A stretch of 64,000 nucleotides of DNA. It comes from Ampullaceana balthica (lineage: Eukaryota; Mollusca; Gastropoda; Lymnaeidae). Of this stretch, positions 19,728 through 60,042 are shown one piece after another. Each line of letters starts with the position of its first letter. The first letter of the stretch is position 1. The stretch is from assembly GCA_944989445.1 (NCBI GenBank), contig CALYLW010001075.1, forward strand, positions 1 to 64,000, read 5' to 3'. The translations under genes and the position numbers were made by a program. Under the pieces are notes generated by a model. It saw nothing but the letters and a program-made list of their open reading frames with translations. It did no database searches and was not told where the DNA came from.

Positions 19728-20477
19728 CTATATTTTAGATAATTTATTATATCTATGGCATCCGTCCATCCTCAAGGAATGATGGCGTTTCCTCCTGCCC
19801 CTCCACCCCCTCCTATTTCTCCTGGCCCTTTTCTCCTCGCTCCTGGCTGCAAGGGAAGCATCCGCGACTAGGATGCCCTCACGTACTTTTGCCTGCCAGG
19901 AGGTGCGCTCCTCAGCAATGGTCTCCCACGTTTTATGGTCGATCTGCGCCAGAGTCATGTCTTTCTTGCAGACATCCTTGAAGCGCAAGCAGGGCATCCT
20001 CTCTTCCGCATACCAGTTGCCAGCTCGCCGTAAAGCAAGACTCTTGGAATGCGCTCCGAGCTCATCCTGCGGACATGTCCCAACCACTGCAGGCGCCTCT
20101 GGCTCAGGATTGAGTGCATGCTAAGCATATGACTCCTTCTGAGTACCTAAACATTCGTGATCTTGTCCTGCCACTTGATGTGCAGAATCCTGCGCAAGCA
20201 TCGTAAGTGGAAGCTGTTGAAATGCTGTTTGTTTGGCATAGGTCGTCCAGCAGTCGCTGCCATAGAGGAGTGTGCTGAGCACGCAGGCCTGGTACACAGT
20301 GATTTTAGTCCTATCAGTGAGCTGTGCATTGTTCCACACTCTTTGATTCAGCCTAGCCATTAATGATGCAGCCTTGCCGATTCTGGTTTCAATTTTAATT
20401 TTCCAGGGAGAGTGTGCTTGTGATGTTACTGCCAAGGTAGGTAAAATCCTCGACGACATCCAATGTGTTTCCCTCAA
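19728..20477 (-). pseudogene. LINE copy 2 ORF2 C-terminal domain
   Basis: Two overlapping frames (20477-20121 and 20087-19728) cover the post-RT region: KIETRIGKAASLMARLNQRV, LTDRTKITVYQACVLSTLLY, then after a frameshift KRGR-like AGNWYAEERMPCLRFKDVCK and KTWETIAEERTSWQAKVREG. The order matches copy 1. The second frame ends in a basic tail RSEEKRARRNRRG. The frameshift lies near 20120-20200. Confidence 0.8.
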
Positions 20478-21068
20478 TGGAGATTGCTGGGAGGCAGTCT
20501 GTTCCTTGTCTCATAATGTTGGTCTTTTTTAGGCTTATCGTTAGACCAAAATCCTTGCATGCTTCTGAGAACGTATCGACCAACATTTGGAGGCCTATCT
20601 CTGAATGTGACGTAAGGGCTGCGTCATCCGCGAAGAGCAACTCTCTAATTAAAACCGTTTCCACTTTTCTCTTCGCCCGGACACGGCTGATGTTGTATAG
20701 ATTTCCATCCATCCTGGTATGGATGTTTACACCCTCGAAGCAGTCCTTGAAAGCATGACGCAGTAGCATCGAGAAAAAGATACCGAAGAGTGTTGGAGCC
20801 AGTACACAGCCCTGTTTGACTCCGCTACAAACTGGGAAGGGTTCTGATGTGGCGCATTGAAGAACACTGTGCTTTGCATGTTGGTGTGGAAGGACTCAAT
20901 GATGGAGAGAAGCCGCGGTGGACATCCTATTTTTTTCAAAATACGTAGCAGACCCTTGCGGCTGACCAGGTCAAATGCCTTTGTTAGATCTATGAAGGCA
21001 ACGAAGAGGGCTTTCTGTTGCTCCCGACACTTCTCTTGTAGCTGACGGAGTGAGAAGATCATGTCCAT
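20395..21068 (-). pseudogene. LINE copy 2 reverse transcriptase, C-terminal half
   Basis: Frame 21068-20727 carries ALFVAFIDLTKAFDLVSRKG (RT motif A, catalytic D in FVAFIDL). Frame 20769-20395 carries RELLFADDAALTSH (motif C, FADD near 20634) followed by DFGLTISLKKTNIMRQGTD and EDFTYLGSNI. The two frames overlap out of register, so a frameshift lies between motifs B and C. The catalytic aspartates are retained although the frame is broken. Confidence 0.85.
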
Positions 21069-21098
21069 GGTTGACCGGCCAGCCCGAAAAACGCATTG

Positions 21099-21938
21099 TT
21101 ATTCCGGGTAAACATTATGTGCCAGAGTTTGCAGGCGTGCAAGGATCACTCTTGCAAAAGCCTTTCCCACAATAATCAGTAAGGAGATGCCACGATAGTT
21201 ATTGCAATCGCTGCGATCAACTATGTTTTTATAAAGCGTGACTATTTTGGCGTCACGCATATCCTGTGGGATGTGACCGTGTTCCCAGCAATCACACATG
21301 AGTTCGTGCAGAGGCTCCAGTAGTGCTGTCCGGCCGTGCTTAAGGACTTCTGCATGAATGACATCGTTGCCTGGGGCCTTCCCATTGCTCAGATGATCGA
21401 TATCCCTACTAAGCTCCTCTAGTGACGGTGGAGCATCAAGCTGATCTAGGACTGGTAGATCTGGGATTATATCTATGGCAGAGTCAGATACTAATTTCTG
21501 TGTCGCATAGAGTTCTAGATAGTGCTCAGTCCAGCGCCGCATCTGCTTGTCTCGTTCTGTGATCATCTCATCTGATTTTGCCTTGATAGGAGCTGACTTT
21601 GATGTTGTGGGACCAGGGGCCTTTTTTATGCCTTCGTACATTTTTTTGATATCTCCCTGATCAGCAGCAGATTGAATGCTTTTGCATAGTTCCACCCAAT
21701 AAGTGTTAGCGCAAAAACGTGCAGTCTTCCGGGATGTGTTTCTGGCATTTCTGAGACATTGCAGGTTGTCGTGTCCCGGGGAAGCTGTGTAGGCCAATAG
21801 AGATTTCCTTTTTGCCTCCGTCACGGGATTCATTGTAACCCAGTGGGCCTCAAACCAATCTGCATTTTCTTTCCCTCCTCCCGAGGACGGCAAGAGAGGT
21901 GTTGTAAATAGCGTCTCGAAGATGGAGCCAATTAGCAT
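21099..21938 (-). pseudogene. LINE copy 2 linker and RT N-terminal half
   Basis: Open for 279 codons. It carries the endonuclease-RT linker (DWFEAHWVTMNPVTEAKRKS, WTEHYLELY) and RT motifs 0-2: NGKAPGNDVIHAEVLKHG, MRDAKIVTLYKN, NNYRGISLLIIVGKAFARVI. It ends at NVYPE before the frame shift into motif A. The NYRGISLL motif is typical of non-LTR RTs. Upstream overlap with the endonuclease frame (21850-21938) is in a different register, marking another frameshift. Confidence 0.85.
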
Positions 21939-22530
21939 CGATTAGTTCTGTCCCTATAACATCATGGGGATTGGGGATTGCTTTCTGCGAGGTATTGGCC
22001 TTAAGAGCTTGCTCAAGCTTGGTATTAAGCTGATCCCTTATCTCAGGACATTTGATATTGTGCGTGTTGATGCGAGTTTGACCCTTGCTCTTAGAGTGAC
22101 ACAGTTTGTTTGGTATTAATTTGATTCTACTTGCGACCAAAGAGTGGTCTGTGTCACAGTCGGCACTGTGGTAACTGCGTGTTTGGAGCACACTGGCCAG
22201 GTCAGATCGCCTGGTGAGAACGAGATCAAGCTGGTGCCAGTGCTTGGTGCGGGGGTGTCTCCAAGACACTTTCTGGATGTTCTTGCATTTGAAGAATGTG
22301 TTAGTTACACACATATTGTGAGTACTGCATAGCTCGAGCAGTCGCTGGCCATTGTTATTAATTTTACCAATGCCATGTAAGCCAATGCTGGTGGACCAGG
22401 CTTTGTGATCTCCCCCTACCCTGTCGTTGAAGTCAACGAGGAGGTATATACTCTCATGTGTGGGAATATTTGCTACCGCGGAGTATACGCCAATTGAGCA
22501 GTGGCTTATAACCGGTAACTGCCGTTCCAC
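21850..22530 (-). pseudogene. LINE copy 2 AP endonuclease fragment
   Basis: 226 codons matching the C-terminal two thirds of a LINE apurinic endonuclease: LVDFNDRVGGDHKAW (normally GDFNARVG), NGQRLLELCSTHNMCVTNTF, WRHPRTKHWHQLDLVLTRR and DCDTDHSLVASRIKL, the last holding the DH pair of the SDH motif. The N-terminal part with the first catalytic residues is absent. The upstream sequence switches straight into 5'-UTR-like DNA. It cannot encode an active nuclease. Confidence 0.85.
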
Positions 22531-23060
22531 GTGTTGTGTCTACGCCTTGCAGCGAAGCTGGAGTGACCTCTCCAGGATTGGGTTGAGGAGGTAGAGGAAA
22601 AAAAAGGAGGCTATGATAGTCTAGGCGGAGCTTTAAAGAAGACCAGTTGTTGCCCAGGCAGCAGGCCCTCTCTCTCCACACAAATGGTGATTCCAGGGGA
22701 ACAGCTTAGCTGATACAACAAGGCGCCATCTGTGTCGCAGGAGTTGCCAGAGATATAGCGCATCGCAATAAAACTGCCTAAGGGACTCCGTCTCCTGATT
22801 TTCGGTTAGGGTTTACTCCCTTAGTCTCTCCATGAACAGGTGTGGCCGCGAGACAGCTGAGGTTTGAGATTGGAGTTTCCCTCTCCTAGATGAGCTACCT
22901 ATCAAGGTTTACGAGCCCCATCTGCCCGAAGTGGCTGGTTTTAAGGCGCCAGCGGCCCGCCTTCACCCCTTCTCCTGTCAGTTGAAACGTGATCCGCCAG
23001 ACTTGGTTACAAGTCATACGAGAAGGCCAGGAGTTGGACTTTGGTTAGCAGAGGCTATTA

Positions 23061-36400: not shown

Positions 36401-37941
36401 ATGGGAAAAATCATTTTGAACTCCGCCCAAAAATGAGTGTGTATTAGAATATAATTCTATATATACGTAGACGTTTAATATGGCCCATGATGGTTTTTTT
36501 AAGCTCTATGGTTGGGAAAGATCAATTAATCAAACCGGTAGCCACATTTAGAAAAAACAATTTTTTCTTTATGGTCAAATAAGAAAAACAAAATGTAAAG
36601 GGGCACCGACGAAAAACAATAAATATAGTAAACTTTATAATCCCTATAAATGTCAATATGGATGATGATGTACATATGTGCAATGTTTGTTTTAGATCAA
36701 TCAATCCATATAAGAACATATTCGACACAAACCACAAATAAACATACTTTGTTAAGGTACTATGCAGTCAAATCATCATTGTCAAAATATGTAAAGGTAT
36801 AGTAACCTTTAGCTTTCAAAGCTGATTTATGTTATTTAAAAAAAAATATATTTAAAATAATTTTTGAGTTCCTTCACTTTTTTAAAATAGTTTTTTCTAC
36901 TTTTAGAAAAAGATGTAGAAAATAAAAATTCAAACTTATTGCATTTTTAAAAAATGTCAATTAATTTCCTACCTTAATTTAAATATATTAAATTAAAAGT
37001 TTATTTTTTTAATGAAATGAAAATTATAGCGAAGAGTTAGATTATTTCATTAGTAAAAAATAATGTTAGTTTGGGGAAATAACCTCTCTATCAGATCAAC
37101 TCTGTCTCACGTTAATGGTTCCTTCTCCGACATAATTTTCAACATGTTGAATGTTCACATTTGGAGCTACTAACGGAGGCCTGAAAATAAACGAACATAA
37201 ATTAGATTAAGTTGATTGATTTGAACGTATATTTTAAAATATATTTCAAATGTTAATTCTGTCAATTTTTAAAATGAAATGTAATATACTTTTTTTTAAA
37301 TACTCATTAAAAATAACGATATTATTATTTTTTTTTGGCCAGTTTCTAGCATCTGCTAAACTAATTTATGTATATAATTTTATAATATGTTCAAAAGTGA
37401 TTAATTTTTAAACATAGAATCACCTGCCTCAAATTTATATGTAAATTACACGGGACTGCTCTCTAAAAATCTTGAATGTCTTAGTCATTGGCATGTTTGT
37501 CATCGGTATATACTTCACATCCTCAATTGTCGTTAATTGTTAAAGATTTATTTGAAAAAGAGTTCATTATAGTTGATCGAACATAAAGAATTAAGTAAAC
37601 TTAGATAAAGCTTAGAAATCATAGCATTCCTAAAAAGGGTAGATGCAAACAATATAGTCATTCTTTGTTTAGATTCACAGTTTCTCAAACTGAACTTTAG
37701 CAAACGTAAATACTTAATTTGGTATCAGCATATTCTCCATTAATAAAACATTTCAGATAACACTCAATTAACATAAGTCATATTTTATTGATATGACGAA
37801 CATTTATAATTGGGTAAATTGTAATTTATCAATTAAAAATAATCAGTACTTTTCATTGGCTTATTTCGCTTAAATATATGAATTAAACCAAATAATGTAC
37901 AATGTCTGATAAAAAAATATGAAATGTTATTGTAAAAGCCA
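36401..37941. other. AT-rich DNA upstream of the LTR element
   Basis: No gene recognised. The minus frame 36737-36522 is AT-driven. Confidence 0.45.
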
Positions 37942-38252
37942 TGTCAGGGACATATTATAGCTAATGGGGTTTTCCCGATGTGTATGTGTTTGTACGAGTC
38001 TGTGGTGCAGTGTGGAATAGTGCGCATGGTATGGAACACCATGACGTAGCATGAGAAGATGTGACGCGTGATAGTGAACGTGACGTAGGGACGGTTGAGA
38101 GTCTATAGTCAGTTAGAGATTTGCTGTTGTTGCGTGCGGAAGGACCGTGTTGGACGTTAATAAAACTTATGTATGTTATAATGGTGTTGGAGTTACTTTG
38201 ATTTGTAGCCTGTCATTGTGGTCATTACAAGTACCCAGACAACGACGTAACA
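37942..38252 (+). repeat. 5' LTR (311 bp)
   Basis: Starts TGTCAGGGACATATTATAGC and ends AACGACGTAACA. Contains AATAAA (about 38159) and several TGACG words (ATGACGTAGC, GTGACGCGTG, GTGACGTAGG) that resemble CRE/ATF sites. These are plausible promoter elements but unproven. Confidence 0.95.
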
Positions 38253-38253
38253 T

Positions 38254-38274
38254 TGGGGGCTACCGTTCCGGGAT
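38254..38274 (+). other. Primer binding site, tRNA-Pro-like
   Basis: Directly after the LTR, TTGGGGGCT then ACCGT then TCCGGGAT. The retroviral tRNA-Pro site is TGGGGGCTCGTCCGGGAT. Both halves match, but the middle differs by insertion. Proline priming is likely, not certain. Confidence 0.6.
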
Positions 38275-38394
38275 TATTTGTTGACCGAGGCAGCAAGTAA
38301 CTCAAGGCTCCAGTAGACATTGAACGTCCTTTAAACAAGGTTAGTGTCGTAGTTCGCTCTACCGTGCTCAGTGACGAGCGTGCTGTCGGTGGCG

Positions 38395-38935
38395 TTCCAG
38401 TATTTCAACGTAGGTCTGTTCTACCCACGTCCAGAGTGGTGTAGGTGCCGTTTTAGCCCGTCAACGCAACGTGGGTCTGTTCTGTACACATCCATTGTGC
38501 AGTTGTGATGTTCCTGTAGATCAACGCATAGTGAGCCTGATCAATGCTATGTACACGTTCAATGTGCAGTTGTGATGTTCTTGTAGATCAACGCAACGTA
38601 GGCCTTGTATATCCACATCCAGTGTGAAGTGGGAGCTGTTTCTGTGAATCAACGCACCGTGGACCTGTTCTGTACACATTAAGTGTGCAGTCGTCATGTT
38701 CTTGTAGATCAACGCATTGTGGGCCTGTTCTGTACACATCCAGTGTGCAGTCGTGTTCATGTGAATCAACGCAACGTGAGACTTTATGTACACATCCAGT
38801 GTACAGTTGTGGTGTTCCCGTAGATCAACGCAACGTGGGCCTGTTCTGTACACATCCATTGTGCAGTTGTGGTGTTCCTGTGGATCAGCGAAACGCGGAT
38901 CTGATCTGTCCAGTTCCAGTGTGCTGTGGGGTAAC
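38395..38935 (+). repeat. Leader minisatellite, ~60-bp unit, about nine copies
   Basis: Units marked by GATCAACGCAACGTGGGCCT then GTTCTGTACACATCCAGTGT recur at about 38405, 38462, 38522, 38589, 38648, 38710, 38765, 38827 and 38885. Both strands show chance open frames (38521-38859 minus, 38685-39023 plus). Confidence 0.9.
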
Positions 38936-39173
38936 CGTAGTGTCCATTCATCGAGCCGTTGAACTGTTTGCTTGCCTCCTCGACTTTTTTTTGGACACTT
39001 ATGCTTTTGGTTGTTATGATTGACACTTTTATGGATGTGAATTCTGTTCTATAAACAGGCAAGTGCATATTCTCGTTTATTAAACATATAATAATTTGGT
39101 GGTTATTTGTAATTGATAAAGACGGATTAATGTGTCCCGGTACAGTGAACATAAAAATAGTAAAGAAAAAGCC

Positions 39174-41653
39174 ATGAATGGTGAGGGCACGACATTGGGA
39201 TATAATGGTTTCCCGTATTCAAAATATATAAATGAGCAGAGATTCTGGCGGGAAAAATGGAAGAAGTGCAAATAAAATGGCGGAAAGAAGGTGAAGAAAT
39301 ACAGAGACAAAACGAAGAGAGACAGAGACAACGATAGAAAAAAGATGAAAAGAAACGGGGACAATACGGAAAGAGACAGAGACAATGGCGGGAAAATGAT
39401 GAAGAGAAAGAAGACAAAAATATATAAAATATTTAAAAGTGATGACAGTGACTGTCAGGAAGTTTTGTACGGGGTAGCCAGCATTTATTGCGAAGACCCA
39501 TACTTAATAAGGGACGTTTATAGGGTGGCTGATACATCAGCTTACTGCTTTGACTATTATACATATGACAACCCCTCAAAGCCAGTTTATAGCGTAGAAT
39601 ATAATAGAGAGAACATGCTTAATCAGTTGGACGAGGACAGGGCTTGGCAGTCCACGGAAAAAGAACGTTTTAAAAGGAAAACAGTAAAACAATGTGAAGA
39701 AGATAAACGTGATATAATGAAAGGAAGTAGAGAAATACAAGAAGAAAATAGGGTCCTTAAAAACCTTGATGTCCAAAATAAAATAAAAAAATAGATGGGT
39801 TATACGACGACCTGGCGGACAGTCTTAACCTCAATGGTGCGCTAAAAATTGAGATTTTCGGTAAAGAAAGGGAACTAGCGGAACACAAAGAAAAAATAAA
39901 TGAACTGGAGTCAAAACTCTGCAAAGTTCAAAGTAAACTAACAGAGTTGGAAGAGGAAGGCAGGGAGAACAAAACAAAACTAGAGGAAACTGAAGTTGAG
40001 AAATGGGAATTAAGAATGAAAATTGTCGAAATGCACGGCCTGTTAACTCAAAATGATAAAGAAAAATCAAGCTGGCTCAAAACGATTGAAGATAAAGATG
40101 ATAAACTGGCAGAAATGGATAGGAATCTAATGATTTCAAACAAAAACACAGCAGATCTGAGTAAGGCCTTAACTGAAAGGGACGAACTATTGGAACAATT
40201 AAAGTGGGAACACACAATGAAACTAAAAGAAGCTGAAGTGGAGTCCATGAACTTGAAAATGAAAAATGCTGAAATTGAAAAAGAATATTCTAGCTTGCTA
40301 AAAATAGTAAAGGATAAAAATGATAAACTAGCAGAAATGTGTAGAAACCTAAGCATTATAAACAACAGAACACCATATTTGAGTAAGACTTTAGCTGAAA
40401 AAGATGATCTATTAGAAGAATTAAAGAAGGATCAAAGAACAAAACTAGATGAAGCTGAATTTGAATCGATAAACTTAAAACTGAAAATTAGCAATAAGGA
40501 TAAAGAATATTCGAGCTTGCTAAAAATAGTCAAGGATAAAAACGATGATCTGGCAGACATGTCTAGAAACATAGGCAATGCTAACCACATTACAGCAGAG
40601 CTGAGTAGGACGATAAAGGACAAAGATGAAGTGTTGAACAACTTACAGAGAACTCTAACAGAAAAAGAGATAGAAACCACATATATTCTAGAAAGTCTTG
40701 CTCATAGAGAAATGGAGAATTTCGAGCTAAGCCGAAACATAACACTTAATGATGAAGAAATTGCTGAATTGTGGAGAATGCTGGTAGAAAAAGAAGAAAT
40801 AATTGCTGAAATAAGTCTGAGAATAATGGAAAATGATACAATAATTGAAAGTAGTATGCAGTAAAATACTAAGTTGCTTGAGAGTGTTGCTAAAAAAGAG
40901 AAAGCGGAACATGTAGTTGAGAATAATTAAGTACTCATTGAAAAAGACGTTGAAAAGCAACACAATATTGCGCCAGAGATTAAACATGATGTGAGGCCCA
41001 CTGAAAATCAGTCAGTTTAAAGCGCCCTTGTATCAGATACAAACGTTGATCAAATGGAAGTTAACGCAGATGATTTAGAAGTTAAGGGTGAAAAGTTGGA
41101 AAATAAAGTTCAAATAGATAATGAGGTTACATTTAATAATGCTGAAGAAAATGAAGATGAAGAAACTGAATATAATAATGAGAACCTCTACATTTGGGTC
41201 GGGGAAAGATTGGCTCCTGACCCAACAGATAGCCCTGGCTGTTTACTTGACATATTGTGTGCTTATGACATTATAGACAGGACCCGTGCCACAGAGTCAC
41301 CTAGAACAGTTGACATTTCAATTTTGGGCTTTGGTTTTCTTTTTCAGTTAATGACATTGATAACTGGTTCACTCACAAAAATATGGTCGAATTTTGTGGG
41401 TGGATGTGTCATGTTTTTAAATATGTTGTTTCACGCTACGCGGACGTGTAAAGGGGTGGGTCAAGATGTAATCCTGAAATATGGAAAATGTAATAGCGAC
41501 ACCAGTTGCTATGGTAAACAAGAAAAATGGGAAGGCCTGAACAATATATACAAGGAAAGTGTTCATGAGCATCATGTAAATGATAATATGCACTTTTTAT
41601 TTTTGATGGGTGGTACAGGCAAAAGAAATATACCCCCATATGTACAACTGTGA
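39174..41653 (+). pseudogene. Coiled-coil and membrane-segment ORF carried by the LTR element
   Basis: One conceptual reading frame of about 826 codons. The ATG at 39174 is in frame with the track from 39291 but separated by TAA at 39273. Part 1 (39174-39791) is highly basic (KRDRDN-type repeats) and then has a tyrosine-rich segment around SAYCFDYYTYDN. After a -1 shift at 39785-39791 the frame continues without its own ATG into a long coiled coil (to 40864) with three repeats of about 75-80 residues, each with LLKIVKDKNDKLAEM-type cores. It then passes TAA codons at 40862, 40928 and 41018 into an acidic stretch (EENEDEETEYNNEN) and a C-terminal part with hydrophobic segments (ILGFGFLFQLMTLITGSL, FVGGCVMFLNMLF). 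No gag zinc knuckle. All nonsense codons are TAA, one change from AAA, GAA or CAA. No family recognised. Confidence 0.8.
39785..39835 (+). promoter_or_regulatory. Candidate -1 frameshift site
   Basis: A AAA AAA at 39785-39791 stands in the zero frame exactly as X XXY YYZ and is followed at once by the zero-frame TAG (39792-39794). Five bases on, GGGTTA (39797-39802) can pair with TAACCT (39826-39831), with inner pairing GAC/GTC (39806-39808 with 39822-39824). The -1 frame continues the protein for over 350 codons. An ordinary 1-base loss in an A-run is the alternative. Confidence 0.5.
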
Positions 41654-42439
41654 ATTTTTTTATTTTTGTTCTGGTTTTATGTCATGTGTATTTTTTTCTA
41701 ATGATCATGCATTTTTGCTACACATGTTTTGTTTATGTATGACGTGACTTGTGTAACATTTTAGAATCCTAGGGAATTGTATTGCTTGACATCAGCTGTT
41801 GGCATATTTTATGATGATTGAGTTTAAACTATTTTGTTGTTTGTTACCAATTATTTATGATATAATAATATACTGTTAAAGAAAAGCAGGGTAGTAGTGG
41901 TATGATATGATGTTTTTCCTATAATGTGTCTCGTGCTGGAGACAGAGAAGATATTATTACGTGAGCCAGGAGTGCTCAGTGGCTATTGATGTGTATATGT
42001 ATATATAAAGGTTTAAAGAAGAGTTATGAATAATTACAGGAGGACAATAAACGAAGAATTCTTTATCAGAAAGAATTTGTGTGAGCCGGGAGAGCTCAGT
42101 ATTGAGAATAATAATTTGTTATTATGTGAGCCAGTAGTGCTCAGTGGAAACCGATCTTTGTTGTTATGTATGGATAAGACGTTATCCCATAACTTATGCC
42201 TCGCACAGAGGACGATCAAGGAATAATTCTTTGTCAGAAAGAATTTGTTTAAGCCGGAGAGCTCAGTATTGAGAATAATAAGGTGTTTTTTACGTGTACC
42301 AGACAGGTCAGTATTATGAACGATTCAAGTAAATAATATTCTTGTTGTGAACATATTATTATGTATCTTTAAGATGCTATACATTTCAGGTTGTAGATTT
42401 AACTCCATGAGTTAAATCTAAAGTAAATGAGGGGGGATA
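41654..42439 (+). repeat. 3' internal region with GAGCCGGGAGxGCTCAG repeats
   Basis: GTGAGCC...GTGCTCAGT or GAGCTCAGT words occur near 41961, 42081, 42125, 42247 and (degenerate) 42293. The block AATTCTTTATCAGAAAGAATT plus GAGCC...CAGTATTGAGAATAATAA is duplicated at about 42055-42113 and 42226-42281. GAGC...GCTC could form short hairpins. Confidence 0.75.
42427..42437 (+). other. Polypurine tract
   Basis: ATGAGGGGGGA immediately upstream of the 3' LTR, as required for plus-strand priming. Confidence 0.85.
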
Positions 42440-42750
42440 TGTCAGGGAAATATTATAGCTAATGGGGTTTTCCCGACGTGTATGTGTTTGTACGAGTCTG
42501 TGGTGCAGTGTGGAATAGTGCGCATGGTATGGAACACCATGACGTAGCATGAGAAGATGTGACGCGTGATGGTGAACGTGACGTAGGGACGGTTGAGAGT
42601 CGATAGTCAGTTAGAGATTTGCTGTTGTTGCGTGCGGAAGGACCTTGTTGGACCTTAATAAAACTTATGTATGTTATAATGGTGTTGGAATTACTTTGAG
42701 ATGTAGCCTGTCCTTGTGGTCATTACAAGTACCCAGACAACGACGTAACA
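42440..42750 (+). repeat. 3' LTR (311 bp)
   Basis: Same length as the 5' LTR with about 10 substitutions and no indels. TG...CA ends intact. Followed by AGCCA, the target duplication. Confidence 0.95.
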
Positions 42751-42755
42751 AGCCA

Positions 42756-45759: not shown

Positions 45760-46730
45760 GACTTTGGGTTAGCTGGAAAAGAAATGAAAGATTTTGTCGA
45801 AGAGAAAATCAAAGTAGCCAAAGAAGAATAAAAGCAAAAAATAGCCAACGAAGAAGAGAAGCAAAAAATAGCCAAAGAAGAAGAGAAGCAAAAAATAAAC
45901 ACAGAAGAAGAGATTCAAAAGCTACTAATTTAAAGAAAAGTTAGGGTTGCAAGAATAGAAATTTAACAACTTCAATTGAACAATTAAAACTACAATCTGA
46001 CCTACAGAGCAAAGGCTACATTCCTGGTAATGCCTCAAATGAAAAGTCAACACCGAAGGATATAATCAAAGTTATACAATATGATAGCAAGAAAGAAAAA
46101 TGGATGTTTATCTGGATTATTTTTGAATCCATAATGGCCATCAAAGGTTATGATGAAAAAGATTTGCAAGCACAAGTGATGATTCAACTAACTGTAGAAG
46201 CATTTGAACTTTACAATAGTATAGATAAAGTGCACAAAAACATATATAAAAATGTCAAAAAGGCACTTTTATGTCATTTATGGAAGTCAGAAAATGATTG
46301 CAGAAAGGAATTTCACGAGATTAGAATTAAAATGGGAAAAAGGTCCTCAGATTATAGTACACGAAGCACAGGTTAAATAAATACAACTGCTGGAACTTAC
46401 AGCAATAGATACAAGCAATCCAAAGGCCATACTAGACATTGTGTTAATTGAGAAGTTCTTAGAAAACGCAACACAAGCTTTATTCACATATTTAACCGAT
46501 AAGAAAGTTCGTACCCAACAAGAGCTAACAAATACATTACGTGCATTTAACTACTCTAATCCAAATGTAGAAATGGACAAAAGACAAGATATATTTGCAT
46601 AAGTAAAAAAAAATGAAAAATAAGAACAGAAAAAAGACAATGAATGAGTCTTCCAAACCCAGTCAACATACAAACTATTTGCTGTTACTTTAACAAGTCA
46701 GGACATATGGCAAGGCATTGTTACTACAAC
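45760..46730 (+). pseudogene. gag remnant
   Basis: Begins with a charged segment (DFGLAGKEMKDFVEEKIKVA) and three nine-residue repeats KQKIAxEEE (45830-45905). The capsid-like part follows in frame 46104-46376: AIKGYDEKDLQAQVMIQLTV, ELYNSID, KSENDCRKEFHEIRIK. It ends in a single zinc knuckle near 46680-46722, C-x2-F-x4-H-x4-C, in which the second cysteine is replaced by phenylalanine. Several stops (46374 among others) break it. It belongs to the gypsy-type gag upstream of the protease. Confidence 0.75.
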
Positions 46731-46979
46731 AGAGTGAAACCAAAATAGTGTGTCATCTTATGGGAACACCATATGAAAGAAAACAGAAGAAAGATCTAGT
46801 CAAGGTCACTTTGAAAACAAAAACAGACATTCATGGAGAGGCAGATATAATCATAACTCTAGATACATATAATATGATAGACCATGGAGAAGGAATGACT
46901 ACCAAGACGTGGATAATAGAGGAAAGATGAAACAAGAAGAAACAAGATCTAGTGATACTGTAGCCACCATTGACAGTCA

Positions 46980-47290
46980 TGAAAAGCTGAAATTCTACCC
47001 AGTGTTTATCAGTAATAAGAAATGTATGTGTTTTCGCGATCCAGGGTACGCAACTATTGTGGTACACAGCATGATGGTAGAAGAATAAGAAAATGATGGT
47101 CAAAAAGACATACTTATAATGGCTGATGGAACAAAGAGAGATTTTCCAACTGCTACTCTTACCATCAACTCACCCTGGTTTCAAGATTAAGTTCGATAGA
47201 AACTTTTGAAAGATGCTATTTGTGATCTCATCAAAGGCAATTTTGAAGGTGTTGACAATTCAGATGAAATGTTTAAATCATGCTGTGACA
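46980..47290 (+). pseudogene. Retroviral-type aspartic protease remnant
   Basis: CFRDPGYATIVVHSMMVEE has the shape of the active-site loop (D-T/S-G, here D-P-G). It is followed by ILIMADGTKRDFPTATLTI, then SPWF and DAICDLIKGNFEGV, all in the order seen in gypsy proteases. Stops at about 47086, 47188 and 47197 interrupt it. The D-P-G replacement would probably inactivate it. Confidence 0.65.
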
Positions 47291-47579
47291 AATAACAACT
47301 ACGTGCCAGTGCACCAACAAGAGCCACCACGTAAAAAAAGAAAATATATACATTGATGTTGATGAGAAAATTGAAAAAGGAAGTCAACTAATGTCAAAGC
47401 AAAAATTAAAAAAAAACTAAAAGGATAAGATAAACCTATAATGGAAATACAAATGAAACTCATCAGAGACAATGAAACAAGCCACAACAAACATAACAAC
47501 CTAAATAGAGGCATATTGATTAACATTGCACAAGCAGATACATGTAAAAGAATTTAGTATTCCTGAAAAATTGCAAGAT

Positions 47580-48696
47580 ACCATTAAATAAATGACAAAT
47601 GACAGTCCTTTAGGTGGACACATGGGTGCCAAGAAAACAATTGCTATTATAGCAGAAAACTTTACTGGCCTAAAATGACTAAGCAGATAAACGAATACAT
47701 AAAGAAATGTACTATGTGTTTACGACACAATCCAAAAGATGGAAAGCACACAGCGCCAATACAATCGACTGACATGGCGAAATTCTTATTTGAGAACATT
47801 GCCATAGACCTATTAGGACCATTCAAAAAGATGTTAAAGAAAAAAACATATGTATAATTTACCATAGTGTATCGTGGAAATAGCCACCAGATGGGGTTAA
47901 GCTATTCCACTAAAACGAATAGGTGCAGAAAGTATATGCACTGAGTTACTCAATGTTTTAGCAGATATGGTTTTCCCCAAACCATTCTTTTATACAATGG
48001 CAGCCAGTTCAAATGGCAGATTACACAAGCTATTATGAAAATGCTAAATATTACGAAGGTGCACAGCACAATTTACCATCCACAATCAAATGGAGTGATT
48101 GAAAGACAATCAAGAATATGCTATCAAAAGTTACAATAGACATTGAAGACAAATGGCATGAATATTTACCTTTAGTACTATTTGCATACAACAGAAGAAA
48201 GATTGAAAGCACAGGTTTCGGTCCTTTTGAATTAATGTTTGGTCAAAACCCCTCAAGGGCATGGAACGATTTCAAAGAAAGACTAATACGCAAACAAGAT
48301 GCCATACACGACAGATATCAGTTAATGTCAGAAAGTAGAGATAAAATGATCTACAGTATTGAAACAGCAAAACAAGGACTAATCAAGCAAAGTACAAGAC
48401 ACAGAGAAATCAAAAATAAAAACAGGCAATTAAGAACATATGAGCCAGAAAAACAAGTATTAGTATTGTTGCTAAACGCAAATAATGAAAACACATGGGA
48501 AAGTCCCTACACGATTGAAGAAAAACTTAGTGATGTGACATATAGTGTCAATATAAAAGGGCATGTGAAAAAACTGCACATTGATAAACTAAGAACATAT
48601 GGTGACAATAAAGAAGAAAGACAAACAGTAAATATCTTCAGAAAAGAGAATTATGCACATAATATGGGTGCAATGGAAAAGAAAAATCCAACATAG
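47580..48696 (+). pseudogene. Integrase remnant
   Basis: SPLGGHMGAKKTIA with IKKCTMCLRHN forms the HHCC zinc finger. IAIDLLGPFKK holds the first catalytic Asp of the core. YNGSQFKW stands where DNGSQF is expected, so the second Asp reads Tyr. HPQSNGVIERQSR holds the catalytic Glu. The last open part (48118-48696) carries YLPLVLFAYNRRKIESTGFG and a GPY/F-like module (WESPYTIEEKLSDVTYSV, LHIDKLRTY). This is a gypsy-type integrase, broken by stops and frameshifts. Confidence 0.8.
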
Positions 48697-48779
48697 AAAA
48701 CATATCAGATATACCAGATACTATGAAAGATAGAGCGATGATTTTTTTTTAAAATAAAAAGATGTCATAACAAAAGAAA

Positions 48780-49800
48780 CAGGAAACACAAAAACTGTGA
48801 CTCGTAAGATACCGCTCTTAGAACATGAACCTTTCAAGAATAAAGGGTATCCTATTCCCATGGCAAATAGAGACACAGTAAAACAAGAAATTGATTACAT
48901 ACTCAATAAATAGATGTAAAAAAAAATTTGACTATAAATCCCTTATATATGAGACATAACTAAAAGTAGTGATTATGTTTAAATGCGACGTTTACAGACT
49001 GAAACAGAACTATCTCCTCTGGTTTTAAAACTGGACGCAGGGACAGTAGGGGGTGTAAACATCGACAATCGGCGTCAACGCGTGAACTGAACTGTCACGT
49101 TAAAGAATTATAAACAAATGTTCCGATAGTCCGATCGCTTAAACTTACAAATCAAGTTAATATAAGGGATTTAAAAACACCAAAATAAAAGCAGTTGAAG
49201 CTAACTATACCTCACCAACTGTCATATTCAAAAAGAAAAATGGAAAGATTCGAATATGCTGTGATTACAGACAATTGAATATTATTACACCCTTTGGACC
49301 ATGAACCTATTGGAGACCCAAGAGACATAGTATAGAGAATTGTTAATTCCAAAAAAGTTACTACACATGGCTTGAACATCGGTCTTTTAGTAGATAAACA
49401 TGGATCCTGCTGATGTTAAATATATTGCATTTGTAGCTATCGATGAAGCATATGAATGTTTAGTGATGCCATTTGGATCAGTCAACAATACAGCCACTTT
49501 TAGCAGATTTATGAAAGTGATGTTACAAGGCATTCCAAATGTGGTACATTACATTGACGACAGATCTATTCACACCAAAGATTGGGAAAAGCACATCCAT
49601 ACACTTGAAGCTGTACTGGATAGACTCAAGAAACATAATATTACAATCTCACCTGAAAAAATAAACATTGTTAAAAAATATATTGATTTGCTGGGATACA
49701 GAATAGACGGAGGTAAAGTCACTCCAACTGCAGAGAACAAAAAAATATCTTTAACCTGTCAGTCCCAAAATCAAAGAAACAAGTTCAACCCCTGCTAGGG
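48780..49800 (+). pseudogene. Reverse transcriptase remnant, split by a MITE
   Basis: The RT starts right after the integrase: TRKIPLLEHEPFKNKGYPIP with KQEIDYILN. It is then interrupted by about 255 bp of foreign DNA (48926-49180) and resumes at AVEANYTSPTVIFKKKNGKI and RICCDYRQLNI. The 132-codon frame 49400-49798 has MPFGSVNNTATFSRFM and VVHYIDDRSIHTKDWEKHI, with the catalytic YIDD, then LLGYRIDGGKVTPT. This is a Ty3/gypsy-type RT. It is preceded by a frameshifted stretch at 49290-49400. Confidence 0.85.
48926..49180. mobile_element. MITE family X, copy 2, inside RT
   Basis: Ends ACTATAAATCCCTTATATAT (48931 on) and ATATAAGGGATTTAAA (49160 on) are inverted. The left 60 bp are the reverse complement of 30205-30272. 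It separates RT residues that are adjacent in related proteins, so the insertion postdates the gypsy element. Target duplication not resolvable. Confidence 0.75.
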
Positions 49801-50333
49801 CTATTTAACTGTTATAGACCATTCATTGAAAACTATAGAGAAATTGTTCACCAACTTACAGAAATTACGAAACACACAGATGTTCTGACATTTCAGTTTT
49901 TAGGAGATAGCTTCAAAGGATTGGAAAACATTAAGCAAGCATTTAGGAAGAAACCTATCCTAGTTACACCCCAGTGGGACACACCTTTCATAGTTTCCAC
50001 TGATGCATTATCCGTTGCATTAGGAGCTTGCCTTATGCAAGAACATGATGGTATTCTTTACGTAACTACAGCACTATAGAGAGAGAATGTTTGGCCATAG
50101 TGTGGGCTCTACAAAAACTGCAAAAATACCTACTAGTTAGCAAATTCACTCTACTAACAGACCACAAACCACTTGTTGCATTTATCAAAAAGAAAATAAG
50201 CAACGCAAAAATCAATCGATGGGTTATGTTATTAGCAGGCTACAAATTTGACAATAAACCTGTTAAAGGAAAGGACAATATTGTTGCAGACATTCTAAGT
50301 AGAATGAAAATAATACAGTCATTCTGGCTGTAA
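49800..50333 (+). pseudogene. RT thumb and RNase H remnant
   Basis: GLFNCYRPFIENYREIVHQL (thumb-side region after RT) is followed by FIVSTDALSVALGACLMQE (RNase H first catalytic Asp), then ECLAIVWALQKLQKYLLVSK and FTLLTDHKPLVAFIKKK (TDHKPL motif), ending VKGKDNIVADILSRM. The last 80 codons (50091-50333) are open. Only about 360 bp follow before the 3' LTR, and they contain no integrase. Confidence 0.85.
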
Positions 50334-51399: not shown

Positions 51400-51411
51400 G
51401 TATACTTACTA
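51400..51411 (-). other. Consensus splice donor overlapping the ankyrin stop codon
   Basis: On the minus strand TTTTTACGTTAGTAAGTAT: GTAAGT matches the donor consensus and its G is the last base of the TAG stop. The ankyrin frame would continue in a downstream exon not identified here. Confidence 0.5.
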
Positions 51412-54400
51412 ACGTAAAAACAATTCCTGGCGATTATTTAATGTGTTTAAAAAAGCAACAATTTCATCATGGTTATGTTTTGATGCTATTTGAATTGATG
51501 TTTTTCCATTTTTCTGCTTCTCTTTTGCATTAGCTCCCTTTTCAATAAGCAGAGCTACTACATCTTTATGACCATTCTGGGATGCTAAGTAGAGTGCCGA
51601 CAATCCACAATATTTTTTCCCATTTACATTAGCCCCTCTATCAATAAGCAGAGCCACTACATCTTTATGACCATTATGTGATGCTATGTGAAGTGCCGTC
51701 CAACCAGCTTTCTCCTTCAACTTAATTTTAGTGAATTTTTCAATACACACAGCCATTATATTTTTTTTACCATTCCTTGATGCCATGTGAAGTAACTTCG
51801 ATTCAATTACAATTGCATCATTTACATTAGCACCATTTTCAATAAGCAGAACCACTAAATCTGTATGACCTTTATCAGATGCTATGTGAAGAGGCGTCCA
51901 TCCATTATTATTCTTCTCTTGTACATTAGCTTCATTTTCAATCAGCAGAGCCACTAAATCTTGATGACCATTATGTGATGCTAAGTGAAGTGCCGACGAT
52001 CCATACTTGTTTTTCTCATTTACATTAGCATCATTTTCAATCAGCAGTGCCACTACATCTTTATGACCATTCTGGGATGCTAAGTGAAGTGCCGACGATC
52101 CATAATTGTTTTTCTCATTTACATTAGCATCATTTTCAATCAGCAGCGCCACTACATCTTTATGACCATTGTTGGATGCTAAGTGGAGTGCCGTTAATCC
52201 TTTATATCCTTTATCATTTACATTAGCCCCATTTTCAATCAACAGCGCCAATAAATCTTTATAACCACTCTGCGATGCTACTAAAAGTGACATCCTTTCA
52301 TTTGTATATTTTTCATTTACATTCACACCCGCTTTAATTAACAGTGCCATTACATCTGTATGACCATTTTGGGATGCTATTGAGAGTGCAGTCCATTCAT
52401 CTTCATCTTTTGCATTAACATTAGCCCCATTTTCAACCAGCATCTCCACTATATCTTTATGACCACTCTCGGATGATACTAAAAGAGGCGTAGATTCATT
52501 TATATCTTTTTCATTTACATTCGCACCCGCTTTAATTAAAAGCGCCACGACATCTTTATGTCCATATTTGGATGCTATGTAAAGTGACGTATGTTTATAT
52601 AGATCTTTCTCATCTATATTGGCCCCCTTCTCAATAAGAAGGCCCACTACTTCTTTATGACCATTCTGGGATGCTACAAAAAGTGGCGTCCATCCATTTG
52701 TATTTTTTGCATTTACATTCGCACCTGCTTTAAATAAAAGCGCCACGACATCTTTATGTCCTTTTTTGGATGCTATGTAAAGTGACGTCTGTTTATATAG
52801 ATCTTTCTCATCTATATTGGCCCCCTTCTCAATAAGAAGGCCCACTACTTCTTTATGACCATTGTATGATGCTATGTGAAGTGCCGACGATCCATAAATG
52901 TTTTTCTCATTTACATTAGCCTCATTCTCAATCAGCAGTGCCACTACATCTTTATGTCCATTCTGAGATGCTAAGTGAAGTGACGTTAAACCTTTATATC
53001 CTTTATCATTTACATTAGTCCCATTTTCAATCAACAGCGTCACTACATCTTTATGACCATTCTGGGATGCTATAGAGAGTGCAGTCCATTCATCTTCCCC
53101 TATTGCATTTACATTCAAACCATTTTCAATCAGCATCTCCACTACTTCTTTATGACCATTCTGGGATGCTACAAAAAGTGGCGTCCATCCATTTGTATCT
53201 TTTGCATTTACATTTGCACCTGCTTTAATTAATAGCGCCACTACATCTGTATGACCATTTTGGGATGCAAAAGAGAGTGCAGTCCATTCATCTTCCTCTT
53301 TTGCATTTACATTCGAACCATTTTCAATCAGCATCTCCACTACATCTTTATGACCATTATGGGATGCTACAAAAAGTGGCGTCCATCCATTTGTATCTTT
53401 TTCATTTACATTTGCACCTGCTTTAATTAATAGCGCCACTACATCTGTATGACCATTTTGGGATGCTATAGAGAGTGCAGTCCATTTATCTTCCCTGTGT
53501 ACATTACTATTCGCCCCATTTTCAATCAGCATCTCCACTATATCTTTATAACCATTCTTGGATGCTACAAAAAGTGGCGTCCATCCATTTGTATCTTTTT
53601 CATTTACATTCGCACCCGCTGTAATTAACAGTGCCACTACATCTTTATGTCCGTTTTTTGATGCCATGTAAAGTGACGCCTTTCCATTATTATTTTTATC
53701 ATTTATTTTCGACCCCTTTCCAATGAGCAATGCCACTACATCTATATGGCCATTCTGGGATGCTATGGAAAGTGCGGTCATGCCATTATAATTTTTCTCA
53801 TTTACATAAGTCCCATTTTCAATCAGCAGCGTGATTACATCTATGTGACCATTAAGAGATGCCATTGACAATGCCATCCATCCATTATTATTTTTCTCAT
53901 TTACATTAGCCCCCTTTGCAATAAGCAGCGTCACTACATCTACTTGACCATTTAAGGATGCTATGGAAAGTGCCGTACATCCATTATTATTTTTCTCATT
54001 TACATTTGCCTCGTTTTCAATTAGCAGCGACACTACATCTATATGACCATTTTGGGATGCTATGTGAAGTGCCGTCCATTTATCTTTCTCTTTCACATTT
54101 ACTTTAACTCCATTTTCAATCAGCAGAGCCACTACATCTCTATGACCATTTTGTGATGCCATGTAAAGTGACGTCCGTCCATACTTCTCTTTCTGATCTA
54201 CACTAGCCCCATTTTTAATTAGCAGTGTCACTATATCTGTGTTACCATTTTGAGATGCCATTTGAAGTGACGTCCATTCATTAGTATCTTTTACATTTAT
54301 GTTCAACACCGTTTCAATCATCATTTCCAGTATATCTATATGACCATTCTGGCATGCTATGATATGTGTGGGACATCCGTTTTCATTCTTTTCATGTACA

Positions 54401-54561
54401 TTAGCCTTCTTTTCAACAAGCAGATCCACTACAACCGTGTTACTATTCTGGCATAATTTGTTAATTTTTTTCTTTTTTTTGTTCTCATTCCAATTAGCGC
54501 AATATCCAATGACAAACACCTCATCTGTGTGACCATTTTCTGATGCTGTACAAATTGCCAT
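51409..54561 (-). CDS. Giant ankyrin-repeat exon (1050 codons, intact)
   Basis: Uninterrupted open frame encoding about 31 consecutive ankyrin repeats of 33 residues with a strong consensus (NGxTALxIASQNGHKDVVALL then IENGANVNEK). Ankyrin arrays form stacked helix-turn-helix scaffolds that bind proteins; no catalytic domain, signal peptide or membrane segment is present. Repeat 2 region is irregular (KKKKKINKLCQNSNTVVV), so the first one to two repeats are degenerate. An in-frame TAA lies 9 bases before the first ATG. A candidate acceptor TTTGTACAG ends 15 bases inside the ORF, so the true start may be a splice site. At the 3' end CGTTA/GTAAGTAT overlaps the stop codon TAG, so this is probably an internal exon. 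Central repeats show a 66-residue two-repeat higher-order period. No other gene is adjacent within 1 kb. Partners and function unknown. Confidence 0.85.
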   Translation of the reverse strand: MAICTASENGHTDEVFVIGYCANWNENKKKKKINKLCQNSNTVVVDLLVEKKANVHEKNENGCPTHIIACQNGHIDILEMMIETVLNINVKDTNEWTSLQMASQNGNTDIVTLLIKNGASVDQKEKYGRTSLYMASQNGHRDVVALLIENGVKVNVKEKDKWTALHIASQNGHIDVVSLLIENEANVNEKNNNGCTALSIASLNGQVDVVTLLIAKGANVNEKNNNGWMALSMASLNGHIDVITLLIENGTYVNEKNYNGMTALSIASQNGHIDVVALLIGKGSKINDKNNNGKASLYMASKNGHKDVVALLITAGANVNEKDTNGWTPLFVASKNGYKDIVEMLIENGANSNVHREDKWTALSIASQNGHTDVVALLIKAGANVNEKDTNGWTPLFVASHNGHKDVVEMLIENGSNVNAKEEDEWTALSFASQNGHTDVVALLIKAGANVNAKDTNGWTPLFVASQNGHKEVVEMLIENGLNVNAIGEDEWTALSIASQNGHKDVVTLLIENGTNVNDKGYKGLTSLHLASQNGHKDVVALLIENEANVNEKNIYGSSALHIASYNGHKEVVGLLIEKGANIDEKDLYKQTSLYIASKKGHKDVVALLFKAGANVNAKNTNGWTPLFVASQNGHKEVVGLLIEKGANIDEKDLYKHTSLYIASKYGHKDVVALLIKAGANVNEKDINESTPLLVSSESGHKDIVEMLVENGANVNAKDEDEWTALSIASQNGHTDVMALLIKAGVNVNEKYTNERMSLLVASQSGYKDLLALLIENGANVNDKGYKGLTALHLASNNGHKDVVALLIENDANVNEKNNYGSSALHLASQNGHKDVVALLIENDANVNEKNKYGSSALHLASHNGHQDLVALLIENEANVQEKNNNGWTPLHIASDKGHTDLVVLLIENGANVNDAIVIESKLLHMASRNGKKNIMAVCIEKFTKIKLKEKAGWTALHIASHNGHKDVVALLIDRGANVNGKKYCGLSALYLASQNGHKDVVALLIEKGANAKEKQKNGKTSIQIASKHNHDEIVAFLNTLNNRQELFLR

Positions 54562-55320
54562 CCATATTTAAAACAACTTCATGTATAAATTATCTCACTG
54601 CGCGTTTCTATTGAATGTGTTTTTTCCAAGTTATTATTTCCTTCAATGATAGAAAGACATATTTTTAAATGAAATAAAACAAATCTGTATTGTATGAATC
54701 AATTTGATATTCTTTAATGTCCCTATATATATTAATATTGTATGCATACGATTTTTTTTTAAAATGCGAACGTTTATTTTTTAAATGAAGTACTGTTGTT
54801 ATATTGTTAATGAACTTTTTTAAAATTTAAATTTAATTTTAAGTTTTATACATTATTTTTCATGAATATTGATAACAATTTTCAGTTATTGTTATCAGGT
54901 TCTCAATTATTAAGAAAAAAAATGATTTTAATAAAATTACAAATTTTTCAATTATTTAGTATTAACACGGATAAACACTCGTCTTAATGCATGCGGAATC
55001 AATAAATGTACATGCCTCTTGGAAACAAACTCAACCAGTTATAGAATGTTTAAGTTTTTTTCAATCTTTTCTATTTTTATGACTATTTTGGGGGATCAAA
55101 TACTTTTTTAAGACCAACTCCATTACATGTGTAGGAAAAATATACAATTTAGTATGTCTTTCCTACTTGTAACTTGGGGATTTATAATATGTTTATGTAT
55201 GTTAAAAAGTGTTTGTTTTGATATAATTTTACTTTATAGTTCCAAATCATGTATTGATAATACTTCCTAGAAATAGAATGCAGTAACTAAAATGGTCTAA
55301 TATGAAACATAACTCTAATT
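54562..55320. other. AT-rich DNA upstream of the ankyrin exon
   Basis: No promoter or upstream exon is recognisable. A minus-strand pyrimidine tract is weak. No other repeats seen. Confidence 0.4.
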
Positions 55321-58790: not shown

Positions 58791-60042
58791 ACACTTAATT
58801 GAATTTGAATTAAATGTTATAGGGAAGAAAACACGTTTTTATTTGCATCCTTTTTATCTCTAAATAAGATACACTGAAATCTATACTAAAAGACGATAAA
58901 TCGCGATTCACCTAAGTCACGATTACATAAATATGGACCGAAAGACCATGGCTTAACGGGGATGCGCAGTACATAATATAGATAAATGTGTTTTCTTTTT
59001 TTAGTTTGTTTTTATTTGGGTCAAAAATAATGAAAAGTTTTATGTTTTGAGCTGGATCATATTGTATTAACTATGTTGTCGGGAGAATGATTATTATTTT
59101 TGTAAATTTTAATGAATACAGTTTAGAGTAGCTTCTATAATTAAAATACGTTTCAAAGCTTATATTTTATTTTATTTTTTAAAATAATGTTTAAACAATT
59201 TAGGGAAGCGTTTTAATTAAGTCACTGGGAGCTTAAAAGGGAGTTCTTAATATTAAAAATGAACAATTGCCATTTTTAAAAAATAAAGATGTCTTTAAAT
59301 TCTGCACAGTGTGATTTAAAAAATTTAAAATAATTTTTTTTAAAAATTAGTTCTAAGGGTTTTCAACTTTGTTGTATTGTCTCTTTTTATAAAACGAAAA
59401 GATAAGTAATTGAAATATATAAAAAAAACATTTTATGCTAATTGTAAGGGCATTGAACCGCGATGGTAATTATTATCTTATTGCTGTTGTGTTGTTTTTT
59501 TATAAATTGTATGATACATATTATTATTATTAATTTTTTTTTATTGTATTACCTTGAAATTGATTTAAACCCATAGGTGATGAAAAACGTGTACAAAACA
59601 TTGAAAAACATTATGCTTTGACTAAAATCCTCTAGAAATACATTATCATATTATTTAGTTGAGAATATATCTAATTTTCTAAAAAAATTACAGAACCCAA
59701 AACACTTCCACAATCCGTATAATACTATAATAAAAGAAGATTTGTTTGAAATTACATAAATGGGATATAATTTACTCACTATATATAAAAAACATTATTT
59801 AAACTTCCTTATTATTTTTTAAGTATTAGCGCTATAGAACAATCGTAAACAAAAAGGACATGAGTCCTTCAGCTGTATCTTTGACTTTCAGGAAACAAAG
59901 AGATTTAAGATAAGTAGTGCACTTTAGGATTGAATTAGTGAGCAGAAACATGTGTTGATGGTATATTTTCTTGTGTTGAATTCAGGATGAATTCAAGCTG
60001 ACCAGGTCATAATTTGTTTGAAAGTATTGCTGAATATACAAC

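What the first reader, a model, noticed from the sequence alone, without database searches (positions are those of the whole stretch)
37942..42750. Complete LTR element that carries a coiled-coil/membrane protein instead of gag-pol
Seen: matched 311-bp LTRs, AGCCA target duplication, primer site, polypurine tract, and a 4.2-kb interior with no polymerase, protease or integrase motif. Its one long frame encodes a basic region, about 80-residue coiled-coil repeats, an acidic linker and hydrophobic C-terminal segments. Inference: either a captured host gene moved by a helper retroelement, or a structural (gag-like) protein of an undescribed non-autonomous family. The hydrophobic C-terminus is unlike any gag I know.
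Basis: partly seen in the sequence, partly recalled or inferred. Interest (0 to 1): 0.88.

Follow-up and report, generated by a model that had tools for sequence, protein, structure and literature searches.

The report
Pol-less retroelement with coiled-coil gag-like protein
This is one decayed copy of a multi-copy jumping element that carries its own coiled-coil protein but no copying enzymes, and it probably moves by borrowing the enzymes of related elements in the same genome.

Summary
The LTR element is real: 311-bp LTRs (301/311 identical), TG..CA ends, AGCCA duplication, polypurine tract, no pol. Its "one long frame" is broken here by a frame change and three stops. In 5 of 7 other copies with both parts, N domain and coiled coil share a frame. 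The 1.1-Gb genome (organism not identified) holds a family: 74 clusters carry leader, N, coiled coil or C; none lies within 12 kb of the 40 DNA-scored pol places except one nest of separate elements. Ty3/Gypsy relatives, integrase before RT (Gmr1-like order, read in one element), share its 3' end and LTR start: 13 of 40 scored pol places. The N domain recurs at about 40-68% identity; 28 of 110 such places have open frames of at least 800 codons. One lies 4.3 kb upstream of pol, in gag position (C1928). Best reading: a gag-only type non-autonomous element whose protein descends from the gag-position ORF of this Gypsy complex, moved in trans. A captured host gene is less likely but not excluded. 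The hydrophobic C-terminus stays unexplained.

The parts
37937..37941 (.). target-site duplication AGCCA, left
37942..38252 (+). 5' LTR, 311 bp, TG...CA
   Evidence: 40 full-length LTR matches at 95-100% (two of them the window's own) and 29 short ones, 40 of 306 candidates scored
38254..38274 (+). primer-binding-site-like stretch TGGGGGCTACCGTTCCGGGAT
   Evidence: variants in other copies; match to tRNA-Pro recalled, not tested
38401..38950 (+). leader with about 60/116-bp tandem repeats
   Evidence: shared by family copies
39276..39794 (+). ORF piece 1: charged/basic stretch plus N domain (N = 39435-39782)
   Evidence: N domain relatives
39782..40864 (+). ORF piece 2: coiled coil with 222-bp in-frame repeats
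   Evidence: model of relative P0002
40862..41020 (+). linker region bounded and cut by three stop codons (40862, 40928, 41018)
   Evidence: in the 9 other copies aligned there, 8 have no stop in the linker's window-frame codons and L034 has one
41021..41653 (+). ORF piece 3: acidic stretch, hydrophobic segments, Cys-containing tail
41654..42439 (+). 3' non-coding region with short repeats; last ~80 bp shared with the pol-bearing relative
42429..42439 (+). polypurine tract GAGGGGGGATA
   Evidence: also in the pol-bearing C401 element
42440..42750 (+). 3' LTR
42751..42755 (.). target-site duplication AGCCA, right

Best explanation
A decayed copy of a non-autonomous LTR retrotransposon family. 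SHOWN: the family has shared ends, leader and ORF parts (N domain, coiled coil, linker, C part), no pol in the copies read, and some recent members. SHOWN: pol-bearing Ty3/Gypsy relatives share its 3' terminal sequence and LTR start; in the one read, integrase lies ahead of RT. INFERRED: the parts were one ORF; that ORF descends from the gag-position ORF of this element complex; the coiled coil would let the protein assemble into particles with its RNA; reverse transcriptase and integrase come in trans from pol-bearing relatives that recognise the shared polypurine tract and LTR ends. The role of the hydrophobic C-terminus (membrane targeting or assembly) is a guess.
For: Same interior, no pol. 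LTR pairs of 7 elements differ at 1/308 (0.3%) to 14/308 (4.5%) sites, so some insertions are recent. N and coiled coil in one frame in 5 of 7 other copies with both (L033, L034, L035, L038, L042; not L041 and L050, which have indels of their own between or within them) and in relative P0002. Pol relative C401: integrase, RT, RNase H, then a stretch like the end of C, the 3' region, polypurine tract and LTR start; its LTR aligns with the focal one at score 41 against at most 23 in 200 shuffles. 13 of 40 pol places carry the shared 3' end. Distant N domains: 6 of 110 places lie upstream of the shared 3' end (0.018 expected by chance), 2 of 40 leader places are followed by one (0.008 expected), and 1 is followed by a DNA-scored pol place (0.016 expected): C1928, N in an 835-codon open frame, RT 4.3 kb on, shared 3' end 5.6 kb on. 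By eye, adds C1315: N, and a pol match of a second group 2.0 kb on, same strand. C424 and C4: N at 44-47% protein identity directly before a coiled coil at 90-92% DNA identity.
Against: The leader, N, CC and C DNA were not found beside the 40 DNA-scored pol places in any of 74 clusters bar the C401 nest. Of the 110 distant N places only C1928 (script, 40 pol places) and C1315 (by eye, 150 pol places) are beside scored pol; neither was read. N and CC differ in frame in 2 of 7 other copies; CC, linker and C are all in one frame in 3 of 8. No match to any Pfam gag, capsid or zinc-knuckle model, none in PDB for N and C. Selection on the protein is weakly shown: changes shared by copies are 5 synonymous/3 replacement in N, but 7/17 in CC and 9/27 in C, which is neutral-like. 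Mobilisation in trans was not tested.
Confidence: 0.58

Rival explanations
1. A captured host gene: a cellular coiled-coil/membrane protein was transduced into a Gypsy element, replaced gag-pol, and is now moved by a helper (as in maize Bs1).
For: No gag homology; N, CC and C DNA not next to the 40 DNA-scored pol places except in one nest; hydrophobic C part.
Against: The N domain is not single-copy: 468 candidate places, 150 scored, 28 of the 110 more distant ones in open frames of >=800 codons, many with the same score, as young repeats would show (some contigs may be duplicates of each other). One such ORF precedes pol and the shared 3' end. No gene with the N-CC-C order outside elements was seen, but letters for the distant places could not be fetched.
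Confidence: 0.17
2. A plain deletion derivative: the pol part was deleted from an autonomous element that already had this ORF, and the protein has no function of its own.
For: Shared 3' end, polypurine tract and LTR with pol elements; C1928 arrangement; the last ~20 codons of the ORF correspond to sequence just after RNase H in C401; neutral-like changes in CC and C.
Against: The pol-less form is a family with its own leader, many copies and some recent insertions, so it amplifies as such. Its ORF pieces are absent from the scored pol elements at DNA level. It differs from the best explanation mainly in whether the protein still works.
Confidence: 0.2
3. An env-like or other additional ORF kept after loss of gag-pol.
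For: Coiled coil plus hydrophobic segments.
Against: No signal peptide was evident by eye (no predictor was run). The N domain comes right after the leader, where gag lies. In the 13 pol elements with the shared 3' end, the matches leave about 0.3 to 1 kb between RNase H and the LTR, too little for such an ORF.
Confidence: 0.05

Closest known systems
TR-GAG / gag-only non-autonomous LTR retrotransposons (plants)
   Same: LTRs, primer site, polypurine tract and one structural-type ORF, no pol, moved in trans (description recalled; the term was seen only in a search listing)
   Different: Looks like an animal genome (inferred, not identified); the ORF matches no gag model; coiled coil and hydrophobic C part
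Gmr1 clade of Ty3/Gypsy
   Same: The pol-bearing relative C401 has integrase upstream of RT, the clade's hallmark as stated in passages of PMC6238403 and PMC8220671
   Different: The focal element has no pol; no RT phylogeny was done
Bs1 (maize), LTR element with transduced host sequences
   Same: LTR element with foreign-looking coding sequence (passages of PMC7264820; its lack of pol is recalled)
   Different: No host gene found here; the N domain is spread over many repeats and one precedes pol
TRIM, LARD, Helenus/Ajax
   Same: Non-autonomous LTR elements; TRIMs reported in bivalves (PMC6934838, listing and start of abstract)
   Different: As recalled these carry no long protein frame; Rfam's gathering scan found no RNA family in the window

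Membership tests
LTR retrotransposon | paired LTRs with TG..CA and a short target duplication | tested here: met
   for the window copy. 10 other insertions (6 elements, 4 lone LTRs): 5 exact 5-bp duplications (L032, L033 in a C run, L038/39, L044, L047), 2 with shifted or altered borders (L036, L046), 2 with 4 of 5 (L035, L050), 1 none (L045)
LTR retrotransposon | primer site and polypurine tract next to the LTRs | tested here: met
   sequence; the tRNA match is recalled only
Ty3/Gypsy, Gmr1 clade (focal element) | own pol with integrase upstream of RT | tested here: not met
   no pol in the focal interiors read
Ty3/Gypsy, Gmr1 clade (pol-bearing relative C401) | integrase upstream of RT-RNase H | tested here: met
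   (tblastn integrase E 3.9e-8, RT 2.8e-16, RNase H 1.5e-20); Pfam RNase H E 2.8e-24, integrase core only E 0.055
Ty3/Gypsy, Gmr1 clade (pol-bearing relative C401) | placement in the clade by RT tree | not tested
   no reference set was fetched
gag-only non-autonomous LTR element (TR-GAG-like) | no pol, LTRs and cis sites kept, multi-copy | tested here: met
gag-only non-autonomous LTR element (TR-GAG-like) | ORF recognisable as gag | tested here: inconclusive
   no gag model hit; gag position suggested by C1928
transduced host gene (Bs1-like) | host homologue with introns outside the element | tested here: inconclusive
   six-frame searches list many repeats; none was shown to be, or not to be, a host gene

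The most novel reading that the evidence does not exclude
A previously undescribed type of retrotransposon structural protein (N domain, long coiled coil, hydrophobic tail instead of a capsid/zinc-knuckle gag) is shared by pol-bearing Gmr1-like elements and several pol-less families in one animal genome, with the N module exchanged between lineages (C424, C4).
Probability: 0.35. Interest if true: 0.72.

Novelty: new variant of a known kind. Interest (0 to 1): 0.5.

Why it matters
If the ORF is the gag-position protein of a Gypsy lineage, that lineage replaced or remodelled the main structural part of a retroelement, and its pol-less members give a natural test of which parts are needed in cis. 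It also shows how a helper/parasite pair can be recognised by shared ends although their interiors differ.

Tried and rejected
Programmed -1 frameshift at the A-run before 39792: the slippery heptamer is there, but the RNA behind it folds no better than shuffles (z -0.15) and 5 of 7 other copies have N and coiled coil in one frame, as has P0002; rejected as private decay.

Pol hidden in the long copies: the 7.26-kb insert of L038/L039 is a 15-bp minisatellite; inserts in L033 and L049 look like LINEs and those in L048 like hAT elements, by eye. C2361, with 5 kb between coiled coil and 3' end, holds what looks by eye like a LINE endonuclease in the 451 bases read.

Structure: the C piece model is useless (pLDDT 33.5, two sequences); the P0002 model gives long helices, with residues 31-90, the N domain, at block means of 29-54. 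No fold search was run on them. Relatives of C and P0002 in viral contigs and of P0002 in genome contigs: none. N-piece search of the protein database: none (it could not reach longer proteins). SMC-like hits to P0002 are taken as coiled-coil background.

Internal-repeat dN/dS 0.27/0.58 is only weak support for coding. Three stops against 1.3 expected since insertion, P 0.15, fit neutral decay.
Full report
The thing itself. The element at 37942-42750 has two 311-bp LTRs with 10 mismatches, TG...CA ends and the duplication AGCCA. A primer-site-like stretch follows the 5' LTR and a polypurine tract precedes the 3' LTR. The leader holds about 60/116-bp repeats. The window copy's ORF is broken: frame 0 over 39276-39794, frame 2 over 39782-40864 and 41021-41653, with stops at 40862, 40928 and 41018. 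No Pfam or PDB relative was found for N and C; the coiled coil gave only weak background hits and was not compared with PDB.

The family. The LTR found 306 candidate places; 40 were scored, giving 40 full-length matches at 95-100% (two of them the window's own) and 29 short ones. Of the 28 loci other than the window's two, 13 had parts of the same interior next to the LTR and 15 had none within 1.5 kb. 20 stretches were then read further (L038 and L039 are one element): 11 elements held parts of N, CC or C, in the focal order where more than one was present, several of them cut short by the stretch or by deletion, and 4 stretches held the LTR alone. tblastn with pol pieces hit only L036, in a separate neighbouring element. 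LTR pairs of 7 elements differ at 1/308 to 14/308 sites. N and CC share a frame in 5 of 7 other copies with both; L041 and L050 do not, each with an indel of its own. CC, linker and C are all in one frame in 3 of 8 (L033, L041, L050); in L032 and L042 linker and C agree, in L039 linker and the start of C. Every copy shows a stop, frame change, deletion or insertion. In the protein search four N places of 90% identity or more lie in open frames above 700 codons, one of them owing to the minisatellite. Rows dropped: minus-strand and weak CC matches (<200 bits, <90 bits).

Selection. In one search singletons are 55 synonymous, 241 replacement, 17 stop of 313; changes shared by two or more copies are 22 synonymous, 47 replacement, 0 stop of 69 (N 5/3, CC 7/17, linker 1/0, C 9/27). 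About a quarter synonymous is expected without selection. So purifying selection is suggested only for N and by the lack of shared stops; it is not shown for CC and C. The low synonymous share of C singletons (11 of 106) may come from alignment around indels.

Pol-bearing relatives. On contig C401 a decayed element reads integrase, RT, RNase H, then a stretch matching the last codons of the focal ORF, the focal 3' region, polypurine tract and LTR start. Its LTR aligns with the focal LTR at score 41 against at most 23 in shuffles. Its 3' end found 524 candidates, 40 scored; its pol DNA 458 candidates, 40 scored, in a group at 83-90% and a uniform group at 77-78%. 13 of the 40 pol places, all of the first group, have the shared 3' end just downstream; whether the uniform group shares the LTR is not known. 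On C74 the next same-strand LTR match implies an element of about 6.6 kb. At protein level pol has 2176 candidates, 150 scored, many with open frames near 1100 codons. Integrase before RT is the Gmr1 arrangement (passages of PMC6238403, PMC8220671); it was read in C401 only.

Do they share the ORF? At DNA level no: leader, N, CC and C make 74 clusters, none within 12 kb of the 40 pol places apart from the C401 nest. The DNA searches score only the best 40 candidates (N 40 of 170, CC 40 of 522, C 40 of 61, leader 40 of 44). At protein level the N domain has 468 candidates, 150 scored, down to about 40% identity; I took as distant the 110 places that the DNA search had not listed (40-68%). Of these, 28 have no stop in the match and an open frame of at least 800 codons (counted by eye). 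Some contigs give matches at the same coordinates and may be duplicates in the assembly, so these are places, not proven separate insertions. Six lie upstream of the shared 3' end (C59, C1928, C201, C482, C1624, C1170) against 0.018 expected, and C1928 also has pol between: N at 59575-59859 in an 835-codon frame, RT-RNase H at 54427-55258, shared 3' end at 53820, all on the minus strand. That spacing fits a gag ORF of 2.5 kb and a pol ORF of about 3 kb (inference; the DNA between was not read). C1315 (N 85010-85294, pol 87267-87776, both +) is a second case seen by eye. If every distant N place had pol among the 2176 candidates, about 8 of 110 would be expected beside the 150 scored (rough); two places are seen in all, so many N-bearing elements may lack pol.

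The C part has relatives at 48-57% identity, for example C1809 (53%, no stop, frame of 352 codons) and C112 (48%, one stop in the match, frame of 385), so C too is older than this family. In C424 and C4 an N at 44-47% identity stands directly before a CC at 90-92% DNA identity: modules have probably been exchanged.

Database relatives. P0001 (148 aa, 88% to C, contig of 677 bases) and P0002 (489 aa, 92% to CC, with N in the same frame, contig of 3034) are from ENA. No other protein passed E 1 for C or 1e-3 for CC; the searches reach only proteins of similar length that share words, and for CC scored 7993 candidates.

Conclusion. A non-autonomous LTR family with its own ORF of probable gag position, and pol-bearing partners of Gmr1-like order. 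What it works like: gag-only elements mobilised in trans. Membership: it is not itself a Gmr1 element, as it lacks pol; TR-GAG-like membership is met for structure and open for the ORF's identity. In print: the listings showed no title or abstract start describing such an element; only listings, abstract starts and a few passages were seen, so this is no proof of absence. On checking, two facts were mended (5 of 7 copies, not 5 of 5; the uniform pol group is not linked to the LTR), and the odds were moved slightly for them (0.60 to 0.58; host gene 0.15 to 0.17).

Noticed in passing
L038/L039 (G000:C524), coiled-coil region: A 15-bp unit inside the ORF has expanded to about 7.26 kb, with long open frames (YGLLM repeats); shorter expansions at the same site in L035 and L041.
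   Followed up: partly
L002, L012, L020, L024: The LTR tail (about bases 269-311) recurs in arrays of about 33-bp or 75-bp spacing: the element may seed satellite DNA.
   Followed up: no
L033 (G000:C901), 3' region; G000:C1275 C part: A repeat array of about 42-bp spacing in the 3' region and one of 53-bp spacing within the C part.
   Followed up: no
window 45945-50330: A second decayed Gypsy element with gag-like frames (by eye), then integrase pieces, then RT and RNase H: again integrase before RT.
   Followed up: partly
window 51409-54567, - strand: A 1052-codon open frame of ankyrin-type repeats (by eye).
   Followed up: no
G000:C424:374762-381748: Two copies of the N-CC-C part 4.8 kb apart with nearly the same extents and scores: perhaps a tandem duplication.
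   Followed up: no
window 20395-22539, - strand: Broken LINE-like reverse transcriptase frames (by eye).
   Followed up: no
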